Source: a virus
IMG/VR virus record: IMGVR_UViG_3300037341_000035
Coordinates: 1-29,624 of that record
Strand: one strand, 5' to 3'
DNA: 29,624 nucleotides
This document shows positions 7,763-12,467 of this stretch, in pieces; the stretch's first letter is position 1; every line of letters begins with the position of its first letter. A program made the position numbers and the translations under genes. The notes beneath the pieces were generated by a model. The model saw nothing but the letters and a program-made list of their open reading frames with translations. It searched no databases and was not told the DNA's origin.

Positions 7763-7984
7763 ATGAAAACGGCAGAAAGAAAGATGAATAAAGGCGAAAG
7801 GGTTTTCGTGAAAGTCGCAAACCCGATGAATCTTACGGATGATGGACGATACACGTATGATACCGTTGAGTGCGAGATCACTCGCGTTTTTGCCACCGCA
7901 TATGAGGTTCAATCGGTTAATGGTGAGTTGGTGCTACCTAATCGCATTTCACGCAAGCCGAGCGCTTGGTGGTGGCCTGCATAA
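7763..7984 (+). CDS. Hypothetical 73-aa protein, separately regulated
   Basis: The ATG at 7763 has GGGGAGG 7 nt upstream and lies 29 nt after the -10 of a strong promoter with a palindromic operator. The product starts with a basic helix, then strands (RVFVKVANP, TVECEITRVFATAYEVQSV, ELVLPNRI) and ends SAWWWPA. The strand pattern suggests a small beta-barrel, similar in outline to a KOW/SH3-like fold, and the aromatic C-terminal tail is notable. No family is recognised. Having its own regulated promoter sets it apart from the surrounding operons. Confidence 0.6.
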   Translation: MKTAERKMNKGERVFVKVANPMNLTDDGRYTYDTVECEITRVFATAYEVQSVNGELVLPNRISRKPSAWWWPA

Positions 7985-7989
7985 TCGAA

Positions 7990-8012
7990 ACGCCGGGGCA
8001 TCGCCTCGGCGT
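7990..8012. other. Strong intergenic hairpin
   Basis: 10-bp arms (ACGCCGGGGC / GCCTCGGCGT, one G-U pair on the plus strand) enclose a 3-nt loop, 6 nt after the stop of the 73-aa gene. There is no T-tract afterwards. It may be an inefficient terminator or an mRNA-stabilising end separating that gene from the next one (start 8064). Confidence 0.5.
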
Positions 8013-8063
8013 CTGCGCGGGTTAGCCGCCGCGTACTGATGAGATAGGCTAAGGAGGCCCGTT

Positions 8064-8351
8064 ATGAGTTACATGGTAGCAAACAGTTTGGTAGACACGT
8101 TGGAAGATGCGGCACGGGTGCACATCGAGGAAAGCTACAACGACGATTTGCAAGAGCTTCTGAGTGAAGCGGCGACGAGCATTTATGACGCGTTGGTAGA
8201 TGCGTTCGGAGAGAAGCCGGTTGCCTGGATCGTCGGCCAGTACCGCGACGATGGAACACAGGATTACGTTGTCCTCGAGGTTGGCGATTTCGTCAATGCA
8301 ATGCTACAGATTCGAGAGCAGGCCATGGACGAAGCCGAGGCCCAGGAATGA
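8064..8351 (+). CDS. Hypothetical 95-aa acidic protein
   Basis: The ATG has AAGGAGG 6 nt upstream. The product is acidic and mostly helical: NSLVDTLEDAARVHIEESYN, LQELLSEAATSIYDALVDAF, a short strand pair (AWIVGQYRDD, DYVVLEVGD) and a final acidic helix. Its stop overlaps the start of the excisionase-like gene (ATGA), so the two are translationally coupled. No family is recognised. Small acidic early proteins sometimes mimic DNA or bind host factors, but nothing here proves that. Confidence 0.6.
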   Translation: MSYMVANSLVDTLEDAARVHIEESYNDDLQELLSEAATSIYDALVDAFGEKPVAWIVGQYRDDGTQDYVVLEVGDFVNAMLQIREQAMDEAEAQE

Positions 8352-8536
8352 ACTACACCACCACAGAGGCCGCCGCCAAGCTCGGCGTCAAGCGAGAGAC
8401 GGTAAGAGGCCACATCAAGCGCCACGGTCTCGGCACGCGCCGGGGCCGTGACGTGTTTCTCACAGAGGCAGAGATTGACTACATTCGCTCACGGCTTGGG
8501 CTTCGCGGCAGGCCAGGATGGATCACGAGTGAGTAG
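8348..8536 (+). CDS. Excisionase-like HTH protein
   Basis: The product is a 62-aa single-domain protein of the HTH_17/MerR-like class: MNYTTTEAAAKLGVKRETVR, then GHIKRHGLGTRRGRDVFLT forming the wing, and an EAEIDYIRSRLGLR helix. Size, fold and position directly upstream of the attachment site and integrase match recombination directionality factors (Xis), which bend DNA at attR to favour excision. The start overlaps the preceding stop. A transcriptional-regulator role cannot be excluded, because the fold is shared. Confidence 0.7.
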   Translation: MNYTTTEAAAKLGVKRETVRGHIKRHGLGTRRGRDVFLTEAEIDYIRSRLGLRGRPGWITSE

Positions 8537-8592
8537 GCGCGGTAACAATAGCTGTAATGAGGATGCACGTTGTGTGCGCGTGTTGGCCCCAT

Positions 8593-8637
8593 ATATAGCG
8601 GCTATTGCCGCGCCTTGCCTCCCATTGCACGCTATAT
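8593..8637. repeat. Inverted repeats left of the attachment core
   Basis: ATATAGCG (8593-8600) is repeated in inverse as CGCTATAT (8630-8637), and inside it GCGGC-TATT-GCCGC (8598-8611) forms a second small hairpin. There is no gene in 8537-8776. These may be integrase or excisionase arm sites beside the attP core; alternatively they may belong to the captured RNA-gene end. Confidence 0.35.
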
Positions 8638-8673
8638 GTAGTTTCGTTGCGGGTTCGATTCCCGCCACCTCCA
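8636..8673 (+). other. attP core: 3' end of a tRNA/tmRNA gene
   Basis: The segment ends with a complete T arm and 3' acceptor strand: stem GCGGG (8649-8653), loop TTCGATT, stem CCCGC (8661-8665), acceptor CACCTCC and discriminator A (8673), with no encoded CCA. The preceding ATGTAGTTTCG resembles the sequence before the T arm in tmRNA genes, and U at acceptor position 70 fits the G-U pair of tmRNA or tRNA-Ala. No 5' half is present upstream, so it is a captured fragment of the kind phages use to restore the target gene on integration. The excisionase-like gene precedes it and the integrase follows. Phage genes lie on both sides, so this is attP and not a prophage end. Confidence 0.75.
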
Positions 8674-8706
8674 ATTTCCGTTTAGTTGTACTGCAACGAT
8701 TTATCT

Positions 8707-8938: not shown

Positions 8939-9335
8939 ATGGATCAGCGTAGATGATAGGCTGCCGGAAGAGGGGCGAGATGTTCTTGTGTATGCCAAAG
9001 GCGGTTGGATGGCCGTGAGGCACTATCGGGCACCACAAGGCAATTCCTTTTCGGGGTGGTATCCTAACGGCCTGCCGATTGAAAACACGACGCATTGGAT
9101 GCCACTTCCGGAACCTCCATCATTGGAAAACGAGCTTGCTAATGAACGTCAGGAAGGTATGCGATCGTTGGTAAGAGAACTTATTACGATTAGACCATCC
9201 ATACAGCATGATATAGCGGTTGTTTCGGGTGGCATTCGCATACGCCACTTGTTTGTTTCCTGGGATGTTGTAACCGATACAAGGTTGCACAAAAAATATG
9301 CGAAGTACATTGATGAAAGGTTGAAGTTTGTATGA
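8931..9335 (+). CDS. DUF551 family protein
   Basis: The product has 134 aa from the ATG at 8931, which has GGAGG 9 nt upstream. The N-terminal half carries the DUF551 hallmarks: MSEWISVDDRLPEEGRDVLV, a YAKGGWMAVRHY strand pair and the closing THWMPLPEPP. The family is widespread in phages and prophages of Gram-negative bacteria; its function is unknown. The second half (about 70-134) is extra sequence with a longer helix and a GGIRIRHLFVSWD strand; I do not recognise it. It overlaps the integrase start by 4 nt (ATGA). Confidence 0.85.
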   Translation: MSEWISVDDRLPEEGRDVLVYAKGGWMAVRHYRAPQGNSFSGWYPNGLPIENTTHWMPLPEPPSLENELANERQEGMRSLVRELITIRPSIQHDIAVVSGGIRIRHLFVSWDVVTDTRLHKKYAKYIDERLKFV

Positions 9336-10579
9336 GCCCACGTTACACGAAAAAGCCTTTCAGCATCGCCAAGCAACAATGGCCGTCCGGCTCTGTCGTG
9401 TTCTATTACTACTACTACGACGAGCGCGGAAAACGCCGCCGAAAGAGTACCGGCATCGGCTACACGCGAAAGCGAGACGCAACGAAGCAACGCAAGAGAG
9501 CCGAGGAATACTGTTGGAATCTATGGAGGGATGGCAGGCTCGGACACGGCAAGCAAACGCCCACGCTTTCCCAATGGGTAGAGCGGAAGGCGTTCTGGGA
9601 CTGGCGGCGCTCCGAATATGTGCGCGGGAAGCTCGCCCGAAGCAGCGCGGAGAGACCTGCAATCACTGAGACCTACGTCAAGAACGCGGCGCAGATTACG
9701 CGGGACTACATACTTCCGTACCACGGCTCGCGCTACATAGACGAGATCACCGCGAAGGACTGTGAGGAATTGCTATTTGAATGGGTAGGAAACGGAGCCT
9801 CGCACAAAACGGCGAACAATAGGCGTAGCGTCTACTCGACCATGATGGGAGAGGCAGAACGACTCGGAGAGATTGACCGCAACCCGTGGCGGCTTGTGCC
9901 GGAGCTATCCGCAGGCAAAAACCACTACGGAGCGTTAACGATCTCAGAGGTTGCCCGGATCATCGACCCGAGAGGCATCGATCTCGCGCAAGAGCGCCAC
10001 CGGATCTATTACTATGCTACACGGCTCGCGTTTCTCACAGGGCTGCGCAATGGCGAGGTGTGTGGGCTTCTTACAGACAACGTACATGATGTGACCGTGC
10101 ATATGGACGGTGGTACGGCGACCATCAGTTATATCGAGGTGGCGCGGCAGTACAATCCGAAAACGAAACGCAGAGAGCTTGCCAAGGACAAGGACCAGCG
10201 GAAGGTGCCGATAAGCCCCGAGCTTCGCCAAGAGCTTGAGCCGTTTCTTACCGGTCAGGGCCGCTATCTGTTCTCATTCCATCCTCGGCAGGAAACACCG
10301 ATCACGCCAAACCGGCTACGCGAATGGCTCTACGCGCGCATGGAGACGGCAGGCATCCCCGAGGCTGAGCGCAAGAGAAGGAACATCGCGTTCCACTCGA
10401 CGCGGAGGTTTTTCAACACATTGCTCCGGCATGAGCGCGTTGCGGATGATGTGATTCAAAGGTTCACCGGCCACGATAGCGCCGAGATGACCGATGCCTA
10501 CACCGACTATCTGCCGCAGGACCTACAGGCCATCTCGTCGGCTCAGCGGAAGCTCGTTGATGGGGAGATGAAAGAATAG
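9332..10579 (+). CDS. int: Tyrosine-family site-specific integrase
   Basis: The product has 415 aa. A basic N-terminus rich in Tyr and Arg (VVFYYYYYDERGKRRRKST) resembles the arm-binding domain, followed by a core-binding helical domain (about 90-170). The catalytic domain shows Arg239 in LTGLRNGEVCGL, a Lys-rich hairpin (KDKDQRKVPIS), His355 and Arg358 in FHSTRR, His381 in FTGHDS, and the nucleophile Tyr390 in DAYTDY, nine residues after His381 as usual. It should recombine attP (core at 8636-8673) with the matching tRNA/tmRNA gene end of the host. No clear sigma-70-like promoter is visible between the core and this operon. Confidence 0.95.
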   Translation: MSPRYTKKPFSIAKQQWPSGSVVFYYYYYDERGKRRRKSTGIGYTRKRDATKQRKRAEEYCWNLWRDGRLGHGKQTPTLSQWVERKAFWDWRRSEYVRGKLARSSAERPAITETYVKNAAQITRDYILPYHGSRYIDEITAKDCEELLFEWVGNGASHKTANNRRSVYSTMMGEAERLGEIDRNPWRLVPELSAGKNHYGALTISEVARIIDPRGIDLAQERHRIYYYATRLAFLTGLRNGEVCGLLTDNVHDVTVHMDGGTATISYIEVARQYNPKTKRRELAKDKDQRKVPISPELRQELEPFLTGQGRYLFSFHPRQETPITPNRLREWLYARMETAGIPEAERKRRNIAFHSTRRFFNTLLRHERVADDVIQRFTGHDSAEMTDAYTDYLPQDLQAISSAQRKLVDGEMKE

Positions 10580-10611
10580 AAGGCCGCGCGCCTCCACCCG
10601 GCCACGGCCAT

Positions 10612-10650: not shown

Positions 10651-10809
10651 ACTACCCTTGCGGGGATTTGTAGTCCCCATTCGGGAGCTACCCGACGCGC
10701 GGGCCACGCGCCCTCCCTGTGGTCGGGAGCAACCGCGTTTGTGGGCGGGTGCACCCGAGGGCGTTCAGCGGATCGCCCGTAAGGTGTTTAGATAAAACCC
10801 GCCTACACT
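10651..10809. other. Highly structured GC-rich intergenic segment
   Basis: No convincing gene is visible. Inverted repeats are dense: GGGGA/TCCCC (10662-10678), CCCGAC/GTCGGG (10691-10696 with 10722-10727) enclosing GCGCG/CGCGC (10697-10711), a perfect 12-bp palindrome CGGGTGCACCCG (10746-10757), GGGCG/CGCCC (10759-10778), and GGGCGGGT (10743-10750) with ACCCGCCT (10797-10804). Nested pairing of this sort suggests a folded RNA or a multi-hairpin transcription barrier. The strand cannot be fixed from sequence. Confidence 0.5.
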
Positions 10810-10885
10810 TGGAGCCGCGGGGAGTTGAACCCCGCTCCGACGGGTGCGCTTCGGCCGTCCCCGCCGTCGAATCCACATCGGCCCC
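10810..10885 (-). ncRNA. tmRNA-like tRNA-like domain without an mRNA-like domain (76 nt)
   Basis: Read on the minus strand, the 5' end is GGGGCCG followed by the tmRNA signature GGATTCGACGG. The 3' end has the T arm CGGGG-TTCAACT-CCCCG, then acceptor CGGCTCC and discriminator A. The two acceptor strands pair over all 7 bp and include a G3-U70 wobble, the alanyl-tRNA synthetase determinant of tmRNA and tRNA-Ala. TCGGA before the T arm also matches tmRNA. Between the halves there are only about 30 nt, forming a short GACGG/CCGTC-type hairpin, where tmRNAs normally carry about 250-300 nt of tag frame and pseudoknots. It lacks the D arm and anticodon arm of tRNA-Ala. Its first base is the last base of the upstream gene's TAG stop. 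Confidence 0.7.
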
Positions 10886-11574
10886 TATTGGCAACTCTCA
10901 CAGGTCTCACCCTCGGCGCCCTCTTGGCGCTCGATGTCCACAAGGAAATCTTCGGCGCGCTCATGTACCGATTTCCGCTCGCTATGCACATGAGCATTTG
11001 GCGTCGTGCGGTCGTAGTCGAGCATGATGCGGTCAAACACATGACGCGCCTGTTCAACGAGGGCGTCTGTGGTGTCTGCAAGCACTGTGTAATCGCCGTG
11101 AATCTCGTGCCGCTCGCTTTCGTGGTTGCGCTCGTTTAGCGCCGAGTCGTTTTGAAGGCGCACGAGCACCACATCGGTGTCGGCGTTCTCGCGTAGATAC
11201 TCGATTTCATGCGGAAACCGCACATCGGGCACTACCCAATCATGGCGCGGGTCGTACACGTCCTCCAGAAATCGCCTTACCCACAGCGTGCGCCCGGTTG
11301 TCTTTCGAAACCCCGGATAGTTCGCCTCAAGCATGTACTGTGCGAATTCGGTGCCGAACGCCTGTAGTGCCTGCCGGGGAGAGATGCCCCAACGCGCATC
11401 TACCGCGTCTTTAAGGCAGCCGTCCATGTGCTCATCAAGCCACCCGAACGCCTCTTTGAGTGCGGCTTTCATCGGCTCGGCCAAGGCGTATTCCCGGAAG
11501 CCATGCTTGTGCTTGAGGATTGCCGCAGACGTGCTTTTCCCGGTGCGCTTTGTTCCGTGCAGTGCGATAATCAT
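10885..11574 (-). CDS. Deoxynucleoside monophosphate kinase
   Basis: The product has 229 aa from the ATG at 11574, which overlaps the previous stop (ATGA) and has GGGAG 8 nt upstream. The N-terminal MIIALHGTKRTGKST is a Walker A P-loop (GTKRTGKS, residues 7-14). The family-typical ALAEPMKAALKEAFGW, RQALQAFGTEFAQ, and WVVPDVRFPHEIEYLRE with an Asp-Arg pair follow, then VVLVRLQN and an NERNHESERHEI lid-like segment. T4 gp1-type dNMP kinases phosphorylate dNMPs to dNDPs to feed phage DNA synthesis. Being the last gene of the late operon is unusual for a metabolic enzyme. The C-terminal 40 residues are polar and may be disordered. Confidence 0.85.
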   Translation of the reverse strand: MIIALHGTKRTGKSTSAAILKHKHGFREYALAEPMKAALKEAFGWLDEHMDGCLKDAVDARWGISPRQALQAFGTEFAQYMLEANYPGFRKTTGRTLWVRRFLEDVYDPRHDWVVPDVRFPHEIEYLRENADTDVVLVRLQNDSALNERNHESERHEIHGDYTVLADTTDALVEQARHVFDRIMLDYDRTTPNAHVHSERKSVHERAEDFLVDIERQEGAEGETCESCQ

Positions 11575-12467
11575 GATGCGGCTCCCGCCCACAGTTTGGG
11601 CTTCTCGGTGATGTCAAAATCGACCTGCCTATCTGGGTCGATGCGAAGTGCTACGAACATGCCGCCCTGTGAGTTGGTGGCGTATCCGCGCTCTCCGAAA
11701 TGTACGTTATTTCCGTAGCTGTCAGGGTCGGTTTCCACGTATGGGGCATGGTAGGTGCCTGTCATGATACCCTGCACTGTGCGTTGCCGGAGTTTGCCAT
11801 ATGGCCCCATGTAGACCGGAGACCCCGCGTCTCTATCCTGAATCTTGTTGTGCTTGTGGCCGATCCAGTAGAGATCAACGCCCTCTGCAAGTTGGCGAAG
11901 CCGGTTGAAATCAATCATGCCTTTCGATACCGGTGCAGCACCGCCGCGCCCGTGGTGCCTGAATACCGTGAATTGCCGGGTCATACCCTCAGAGCCGCCG
12001 CCTGAGACGGTGAGCTTGTATCGCTGGAACCCACGGTAGTCACCCTGATGAATCGGCGGGAGTGAGGAATCGCGCTCACGGTTAAGCAGTGCCAACACCG
12101 AGCGGAGGATGTCGTAGTGGTAGTATTTGACCGTCGAATCCTCGTGGTTTCCCGGAGAGATGACATCAAACAGATCCGCGTATGGGCGCAGGCGTTCAAA
12201 GATCATCTCGGTGATCGCGTTTAGCACGCCGTCTCTCCCACTTGACTCAAACACGGCGGGGTGATAGCGTTTCATGTCACGCGGCAGGATTGCATCGGCC
12301 AAATCGCCATTTATAGAGATGCGCGCCCCCAAGCGCGCTGCGTCGTCGAAGTCCCTCTTGAATAGGCGTTCGTCGAAATCTGCCGCGTCCATATGCACAT
12401 CCGAGCACAGGAATAGGAATTGCGTCTGTCCGCCGGATGCGTCGAGTTGAATCGTGTGCTTGTCCAT
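11571..12467 (-). CDS. Metallophosphoesterase (calcineurin-like)
   Basis: The product has 298 aa with all signatures of the calcineurin-like superfamily: SDVH with Asp23 and His25, NGDLAD with Asp55, GNHE with Asn107 and His108, a later RHHGRGG and GHKH. These ligate a dinuclear metal centre. RBS is GAGGAGG and the start immediately follows the stop of the holin-like gene. Phage members of this family are predicted DNA/RNA phosphodiesterases or phosphatases; the exact substrate cannot be told. Pairing with a dNMP kinase suggests nucleotide or nucleic-acid processing. A SbcD-like partner ATPase is not seen. Confidence 0.85.
   Translation of the reverse strand: MDKHTIQLDASGGQTQFLFLCSDVHMDAADFDERLFKRDFDDAARLGARISINGDLADAILPRDMKRYHPAVFESSGRDGVLNAITEMIFERLRPYADLFDVISPGNHEDSTVKYYHYDILRSVLALLNRERDSSLPPIHQGDYRGFQRYKLTVSGGGSEGMTRQFTVFRHHGRGGAAPVSKGMIDFNRLRQLAEGVDLYWIGHKHNKIQDRDAGSPVYMGPYGKLRQRTVQGIMTGTYHAPYVETDPDSYGNNVHFGERGYATNSQGGMFVALRIDPDRQVDFDITEKPKLWAGAAS

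What the first reader, a model, noticed from the sequence alone, without database searches (positions are those of the whole stretch)
10810..10885. Phage-encoded tmRNA tRNA-like domain lacking the mRNA-like domain
Seen: on the minus strand a 7-bp acceptor stem with G3-U70, A73, a canonical T arm, the GGATTCGACGG signature and TCGGA before the T arm, all within 76 nt. Known: tmRNA normally carries a tag-encoding region and pseudoknots between these halves, and G3-U70 makes it a substrate of alanyl-tRNA synthetase; MLD-less tmRNAs are known from some protist mitochondria, and full tmRNAs from some phages. Inference: this could be charged with alanine and bound by SmpB/EF-Tu without a tag, acting as a decoy or modulator of ribosome rescue, or as a novel tRNA-like 3' end for the late mRNA. 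It could also be a decayed remnant, but the exact pairing of the acceptor and T stems argues against decay.
Basis: partly seen in the sequence, partly recalled or inferred. Interest (0 to 1): 0.85.

Follow-up and report, generated by a model that had tools for sequence, protein, structure and literature searches.

The report
Phage-encoded tag-less mini-tmRNA
This phage carries a complete 76-nucleotide gene for the tRNA-like part of tmRNA, the bacterial RNA that rescues stuck ribosomes, but without the part that tags proteins for destruction; more than a hundred other phage sequences turn out to carry the same stripped-down RNA, so phages probably use it to interfere with, or take over, ribosome rescue.

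Summary
Window 10810-10885 (-) scores 63.4 bits against Rfam tmRNA (E 9e-23), end to end with the mRNA-like domain missing; ARAGORN misses it. It keeps a 7-bp acceptor stem with G3-U70, A73, the GGATTCGAC signature, a T arm and a capped P2 stem.

It is not a lone curiosity. All 84 aligned sequences keep 7/7 acceptor pairs, 5/5 T pairs, G3-U70 and A73. Their P2 and T stems covary strongly (0/500 shuffles). Unannotated copies sit in tRNA arrays of cultured Streptomyces phages, others just upstream of major capsid genes, and one in a Poribacteria clade that also has normal tmRNA and SmpB.

It is probably not an attachment-site scrap. The phage has a separate ssrA 3'-end sequence at 8649-8673, the better attP candidate, which differs from the mini-tmRNA at 8/25 positions. 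Only 7/50 records with the RNA carry a tyrosine integrase.

Most likely it is alanylated, uses host SmpB/EF-Tu and competes with host tmRNA without tagging. One phage precedent, DS6A, is published, so the kind is known; its breadth appears unreported. Function is inferred.

The parts
10810..10885 (-). mini-tmRNA: complete tRNA-like domain, no mRNA-like domain (76 nt, CCA not encoded)
   Evidence: Rfam RF00023 63.4 bits, E 9e-23; motif finder 7/7 acceptor, 5/5 T stem, G3-U70, A73
10879..10885 (-). acceptor stem 5' strand GGGGCCG
   Evidence: sequence
10866..10874 (-). tmRNA D-loop signature GGATTCGAC; in relatives GGNTTCGAC, every base but the third invariant
   Evidence: sequence; invariant columns of alignment A1
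10838..10866 (-). P2 stem CGGCGGG / CCCGTCG (7 bp) closed by a 15-nt cap GACGGCCGAAGCGCA in place of the tag region and pseudoknots
   Evidence: fold; P2 covariation in relatives; cap shared with L117, L144, L084 as CCGAAGYGC
10818..10834 (-). T arm CGGGG-TTCAACT-CCCCG
   Evidence: sequence
10811..10817 (-). acceptor stem 3' strand CGGCTCC with U70; discriminator A73 at 10810
   Evidence: sequence
10885..11592 (-). deoxynucleoside monophosphate kinase gene; its stop codon TAG overlaps the first base of the mini-tmRNA
   Evidence: PHROG 139 E 6e-42, Pfam DNMK E 2e-16
10574..10599 (-). terminator-like hairpin downstream of the mini-tmRNA on the late strand
   Evidence: consensus scan only
9332..10579 (+). 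tyrosine integrase gene, convergent with the mini-tmRNA
   Evidence: Pfam PF00589 E 9e-14, PHROG 1 E 1e-44
8649..8673 (+). exact 3' end of a bacterial ssrA gene (T arm plus acceptor 3' strand plus A73): likely attP core, separate from the mini-tmRNA
   Evidence: Rfam partial match; identical to the 3' end of a full-length ssrA in Nonomuraea; 8 of 25 bases differ from the mini-tmRNA 3' half

Best explanation
It is a functional, late-expressed mini-tmRNA. Shown: a complete, selected tRNA-like domain of tmRNA whose tag-encoding region is replaced by a short capped P2 stem, on the late-gene strand of a temperate contractile-tailed phage. Inferred: RNase P and 3' processing release it from the late transcript, host CCA-adding enzyme completes it, host alanyl-tRNA synthetase charges it through G3-U70, and host SmpB and EF-Tu deliver it to ribosomes stalled on broken mRNA. 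It then competes with host tmRNA, and because it has no reading frame the nascent chain receives at most one alanine and no degradation tag. The net effect is to suppress host trans-translation, and possibly to free ribosomes without destroying phage proteins.
For: Full-length Rfam tmRNA match with only the MLD missing. G3-U70, A73, 7/7 acceptor and 5/5 T pairs in 84/84 distinct relatives; acceptor pairing 84/84 against a mean of 12 when 3' strands are shuffled. P2 and T stems: 444 double-change cells against 155 in shuffles, 0/500 reach it; covariation score 0.90 against 0.15 or less when slid. These are the parts needed for alanylation, EF-Tu and SmpB (established tmRNA biology), and no checked phage record carries smpB, so host factors are needed. 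No record checked holds a second, full tmRNA above cut-off. Expression context: end of the late operon here; same strand and 58-272 nt upstream of the major capsid gene in 24 of 24 loci where that gene was found; tRNA arrays of cultured phages. Precedent: the DS6A TLD-only molecule, or one like it, inhibits tmRNA in E. coli (PMC4131195, PMC11915505).
Against: No transcript, charging, binding or rescue assay. [quoted passage not shown] The host of this phage is unknown, so fit to its SmpB could not be checked. No close relative of this phage with the element in the same place was found. In the window CCA is not encoded.
Confidence: 0.55

Rival explanations
1. Tag-less rescue factor: the mini-tmRNA mainly works for the phage by freeing stalled ribosomes without tagging (the peptidyl-mini-tmRNA drops off and is hydrolysed), for example when host defences cleave mRNA or tRNA, rather than by blocking host tmRNA.
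For: Perfect conservation of G3-U70 and A73 (84/84) suggests that charging, and so peptide transfer, matters; a pure SmpB sponge would not need it. CDS-less tmRNAs co-occur with SmpB in oomycete mitochondria and are thought to help there (PMC11915505). A Poribacteria clade keeps one beside normal tmRNA and SmpB.
Against: The only experiment, as reported in PMC4131195, showed inhibition of tmRNA. How a ribosome would be released after peptide transfer without a template is not shown. Charging could equally serve EF-Tu delivery of a decoy.
Confidence: 0.25
2. Integration relic or attP: a piece of host ssrA captured at the attachment site of a phage that integrates into ssrA, without a function as RNA.
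For: The integrase gene ends 231 bp away; 12-nt direct repeats lie between them; ssrA is a common integration target (PMC11915505, PMC10865867).
Against: An attachment core normally holds only the 3' half of a gene, but both halves are here, with paired stems. The phage has a separate exact ssrA 3' end at 8649-8673 that differs from the mini-tmRNA at 8 of 25 positions, with both varying T-stem pairs changed on both sides. Only 7 of 50 records with the RNA carry a tyrosine integrase, and BRock is described as virulent without lysogeny genes (PMC7453282 abstract).
Confidence: 0.06
3. RNA punctuation: the tRNA-like fold is a processing or stability element at the 3' end of the late mRNA, cut by RNase P and RNase Z, and the released RNA is a by-product.
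For: The first base overlaps the stop codon of the last late gene and a terminator-like hairpin lies about 210 nt further on; elsewhere the RNA sits between protease and capsid genes.
Against: Any tRNA would do for this; it does not explain the tmRNA-specific GGNTTCGAC, the missing anticodon arm, the conserved P2 cap or G3-U70. Many copies lie inside tRNA arrays.
Confidence: 0.08
4. Neutral decay product of a full phage or host tmRNA gene that lost its middle by deletion.
For: A decayed copy exists in Streptomyces phage Alone3 (T stem and D signature broken), so loss does happen.
Against: Intact stems with compensatory changes across very diverse sequences; shared cap motifs; 0 hits in shuffled DNA.
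Confidence: 0.03

Closest known systems
Mycobacteriophage DS6A TLD-only tmRNA (Mao et al. 2009, described in PMC4131195 and PMC11915505)
   Same: Phage-encoded, little more than the tRNA-like domain of tmRNA; a molecule of this form inhibits host tmRNA in E. coli.
   Different: Described as a single case; its sequence was not found in the collections here, so cap and stems could not be compared. The window phage is a contractile-tailed phage of unknown host.
MLD-less or CDS-less tmRNAs of jakobid and oomycete mitochondria and Mallomonadaceae plastids
   Same: tRNA-like domain retained, tag reading frame lost.
   Different: Organellar, products of genome reduction; the phage RNA is an extra copy that would work beside a host tmRNA.
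Full phage tmRNAs (Wildcat, Bxz1, GenevaB15; two-piece tmRNA of Melnitz, S-CRM01)
   Same: Phage-borne tmRNA gene, often in tRNA arrays; that of Wildcat is its most highly expressed lytic gene (PMC7474061).
   Different: They keep the tag reading frame; the window RNA has none, and no full tmRNA exists in the window record.
ssrA fragments at phage and island attachment sites
   Same: tmRNA-derived sequence near an integrase gene.
   Different: Fragments hold one gene end only; here both halves are joined and paired, and a separate ssrA 3'-end fragment exists at 8649-8673.
tRNA-dependent lysogeny (PMC10865867)
   Same: Temperate phage with a phage-encoded RNA of the type whose host gene it targets.
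   Different: There the phage tRNA replaces a host tRNA destroyed by integration; here the putative core spans the ssrA 3' end, so ssrA should be restored, and a tag-less RNA could not fully replace it.

Membership tests
tmRNA (Rfam RF00023), tRNA-like domain | Acceptor and T arms with GGNTTCGAC D-loop, no D stem, P2 in place of the anticodon stem | tested here: met
   63.4 bits, E 9e-23, model 1-374
tmRNA (Rfam RF00023), tRNA-like domain | Alanine identity: G3-U70 and A73 | tested here: met
   Sequence; 84/84 relatives
Complete tmRNA | mRNA-like domain with resume codon, tag reading frame and pseudoknots | tested here: not met
   Only 31 nt lie between GGATTCGAC and the T stem; no second tmRNA in the record above cut-off
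Two-piece (permuted) tmRNA | 3' half of the gene precedes the 5' half | tested here: not met
   Order is 5' half then 3' half; no RF04321, RF01850 or RF01851 match at this site
MLD-less phage tmRNA (DS6A type) | Phage-encoded, little more than the TLD | tested here: met
   Virus record, 76 nt
MLD-less phage tmRNA (DS6A type) | Inhibits host tmRNA when expressed | not testable with these tools
   Needs an experiment
MLD-less phage tmRNA (DS6A type) | Sequence relation to DS6A | not tested
   DS6A not held under the two accession numbers tried
MLD-less tmRNA family defined here | Covarying P2 of several bp closed by a short cap | tested here: met
   Family; window P2 and cap:
ssrA attachment-site fragment | One end of the gene only, identical to host ssrA | tested here: not met
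   Both ends present; 8 of 25 differences from the ssrA 3' end carried at 8649-8673. The host ssrA itself is unknown
Functional tmRNA-type molecule | Transcribed, processed, aminoacylated, SmpB-bound | not testable with these tools
   No RNA or protein data

The most novel reading that the evidence does not exclude
Tag-less mini-tmRNAs are a large, overlooked class of phage RNAs that take over bacterial ribosome rescue: charged with alanine and carried by host SmpB/EF-Tu, expressed with late or capsid genes, they replace host tmRNA at stalled ribosomes so that phage proteins are not tagged, and at least one bacterial clade (Poribacteria) uses a chromosomal version as a built-in regulator beside normal tmRNA.
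Probability: 0.45. Interest if true: 0.9.

Novelty: new member of a known kind. Interest (0 to 1): 0.74.

Why it matters
trans-Translation is nearly universal in bacteria, and only one phage TLD-only tmRNA is described in the papers I could read. Finding 109 distinct ones in viral contigs, plus several in cultured Streptomyces phages, turns a curiosity into what looks like a general phage strategy aimed at ribosome quality control. It also gives natural, minimal substrates for asking what SmpB, AlaRS and EF-Tu need, and what happens on a ribosome when tmRNA carries no message. Standard annotation misses them: ARAGORN does not report the ones tested, and the cultured-phage records leave them blank.

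Tried and rejected
Close relatives of the window phage: integrase search gave none, DNA search of cultured phages gave none for the integrase-kinase region or for the RNA itself, and loci related through the neighbouring exonuclease or tail sheath (29-35% identity) hold no mini-tmRNA in the parts fetched. Attachment-site origin: tested through the integrase census and the separate ssrA 3' end, rejected for the family and unlikely for the window. Hidden two-piece or full tmRNA: not found. Phage-encoded SmpB: none. Conserved neighbourhood of the Poribacteria gene: only partial. MAFFT alignment A1 misplaces the acceptor 5' strand because the D region varies in length, so acceptor statistics were computed separately. 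T-arm-only BLAST hits in cultured phages were not counted; the two looked at (Pseudomonas PA_L9, cyanophage S-CRM01) are two-piece tmRNAs. The cap is not essential to the family: several members have only a loop of about 0-6 nt.

Full report
What is there. On the minus strand at 10885-10810 the window holds GGGGCCG-ATGT-GGATTCGAC-GGCGGGGACGGCCGAAGCGCACCCGTCGGAG-CGGGGTTCAACTCCCCG-CGGCTCC-A. Rfam's tmRNA model matches it from first to last position with the mRNA-like domain missing (63.4 bits, cut-off 47, E 9e-23). ARAGORN does not report it. The acceptor stem is fully paired with G3-U70, the discriminator is A, and P2 is a 7-bp stem closed by a 15-nt cap. CCA is not encoded.

Setting. The record is a virus record of 29,624 bases, probably a fragment, of a contractile-tailed temperate phage: tail sheath, baseplate hub, head protease and major head protein on the minus strand, integrase and a CI-like repressor on the plus strand, RecE/RecT and SSB. 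The mini-tmRNA is the last element of the late strand: its first base is the last base of the TAG stop of a dNMP kinase gene, and a terminator-like hairpin lies about 210 nt downstream. No sigma-70-like promoter was found next to it, so it is probably cut out of the late transcript (inference).

It belongs to a large family. Patterns requiring only the D-loop signature and part of the T arm, not the acceptor stem, were run over IMG/VR. Among the first 105 matches with a GGNTTCGAC signature, 104 had 7/7 acceptor pairs, 5/5 T-stem pairs and G3-U70. The same finder gives none in 1.15 Mb of shuffled loci.

Selection on structure. Across 84 distinct sequences acceptor pairs 4-7 take four to six pair types each while all 84 remain fully paired (shuffling partners gives a mean of 12 of 84, maximum 23). 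The finder gave a small bonus to G-U at pair 3 when choosing the register, but did not require it; the 84 were chosen as fully paired, which sets aside one of 105 matches. P2 and T stems show 444 double-change cells against 155 in shuffles (0/500), and a covariation score of 0.90 against at most 0.15 when partners are slid. G1-C72, G2-C71, G3-U70, A73 and the D-loop signature apart from its third base are invariant. The acceptor 5' strand was not aligned well by MAFFT, hence the separate count. Many members share a P2 cap of the form AAAgCCGCAYGCGGA; the window's GGCCGAAGCGCA matches a second form, CCGAAGYGC, seen in L084, L117 and L144. Some members have only a minimal loop, so the cap is not essential.

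Where relatives sit. 17 of 85 lie within 1 kb of tRNA genes. In 24 of 24 loci where a related HK97-type major capsid gene was found, the RNA is on the same strand, 58-272 nt upstream of it; in the three loci tested the gene before the RNA is the head protease. Other neighbours include DnaB-like helicase and, in L018, a dNMP kinase as in the window. Cultured Streptomyces phages LuckySocke, Shaeky, pSt2308 and BRock carry it unannotated in tRNA arrays; Alone3 has a decayed copy. None of the 23 viral records tested, the window's included, encodes SmpB, and none of the 22 relatives tested holds a second tmRNA above cut-off.

A bacterial counterpart. The one genome scan with the GGATTCGAC form found the RNA only in eight Poribacteria genomes. 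Six of these also have a full tmRNA next to smpB; the other two lack both, most likely because they are incomplete. 8 of 85 genomes of the phylum match the pattern. GGTTTCGAC forms in bacteria were not scanned.

Not an attachment remnant. The phage carries at 8649-8673 (+) the sequence GCGGGTTCGATTCCCGCCACCTCCA, identical to the 3' end of a full-length ssrA of Nonomuraea. About 660 bp ahead of the integrase gene, this is the better attP candidate; a tRNA origin is not fully excluded. It differs from the mini-tmRNA at 8 of 25 positions, so the mini-tmRNA is not that site and probably not a copy of the host gene, though the host is unknown. Only 7 of 50 records with the RNA carry a tyrosine integrase, and BRock is reported as virulent without lysogeny genes (PMC7453282 abstract).

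How it probably works. Every element for AlaRS (G3-U70, A73), EF-Tu (acceptor and T arms) and SmpB (D loop and P2 junction; established tmRNA biology) is retained and only the message is gone. I infer an alanylated, SmpB-bound competitor of host tmRNA that leaves no tag. [quoted passage not shown] 2009, which I could not read). The perfect retention of G3-U70 in 84 sequences suggests that in nature charging matters, which favours a molecule that actually enters the ribosome over a pure sponge. Whether the ribosome is then freed (tag-less rescue) or blocked is open.

Novelty. MLD-less tmRNA is a known kind: mitochondria, plastids and one phage, DS6A. The 2025 tmRNA database paper names only DS6A among phages in the passages I read (PMC11915505), and my literature searches found no report of a wider phage family or of the Poribacteria gene. 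The library is open-access only, so absence there is weak evidence. The window element is a new member; the breadth, the capsid-gene position and the Poribacteria gene appear to be new.

Noticed in passing
8649-8673 (+): Exact 3' end of a bacterial ssrA gene (T arm, acceptor 3' strand, A73) upstream of the integrase: probable attP core for integration into host ssrA. Its antisense gives the spurious VAGIEPAT-type ORF at 8489-8674.
   Followed up: yes
7983-8053 (+): Type II hammerhead ribozyme, 49.6 bits (cut-off 37), just upstream of a small ORF that starts at 8064.
   Followed up: no
L008, L046, L061, L062, L076, L081, L088, L089, L096, L123 and others: Mini-tmRNA directly upstream of the HK97-type major capsid gene, same strand, 58-272 nt, in 24 of 24 loci where that gene was found; the preceding gene is the head protease in the three loci tested.
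   Followed up: partly
L025-L032 (Candidatus Poribacteria): Chromosomal 83-nt mini-tmRNA, one per genome, in 8 of 85 genomes of the phylum, beside a normal ssrA-smpB pair in 6 of 8.
   Followed up: partly
L165:1496-1573, L166:1491-1569, L171:1501-1578, L164:1492-1572: Unannotated mini-tmRNAs in tRNA arrays of cultured Streptomyces phages LuckySocke, Shaeky, pSt2308 and BRock; Alone3 (L170) has a decayed copy.
   Followed up: partly
L169:1411-1547 (LR756511, 595-kb phage): tmRNA match of intermediate length (137 nt), longer than a mini-tmRNA but much shorter than a normal tmRNA.
   Followed up: no
L005:5916-6012 (-): Pistol ribozyme (50.7 bits) about 2.2 kb from the mini-tmRNA.
   Followed up: no
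10681-10692 and 10723-10734: 12-nt direct repeats (11 of 12 identical) between the integrase gene and the mini-tmRNA; could be integrase arm-type sites or chance.
   Followed up: no
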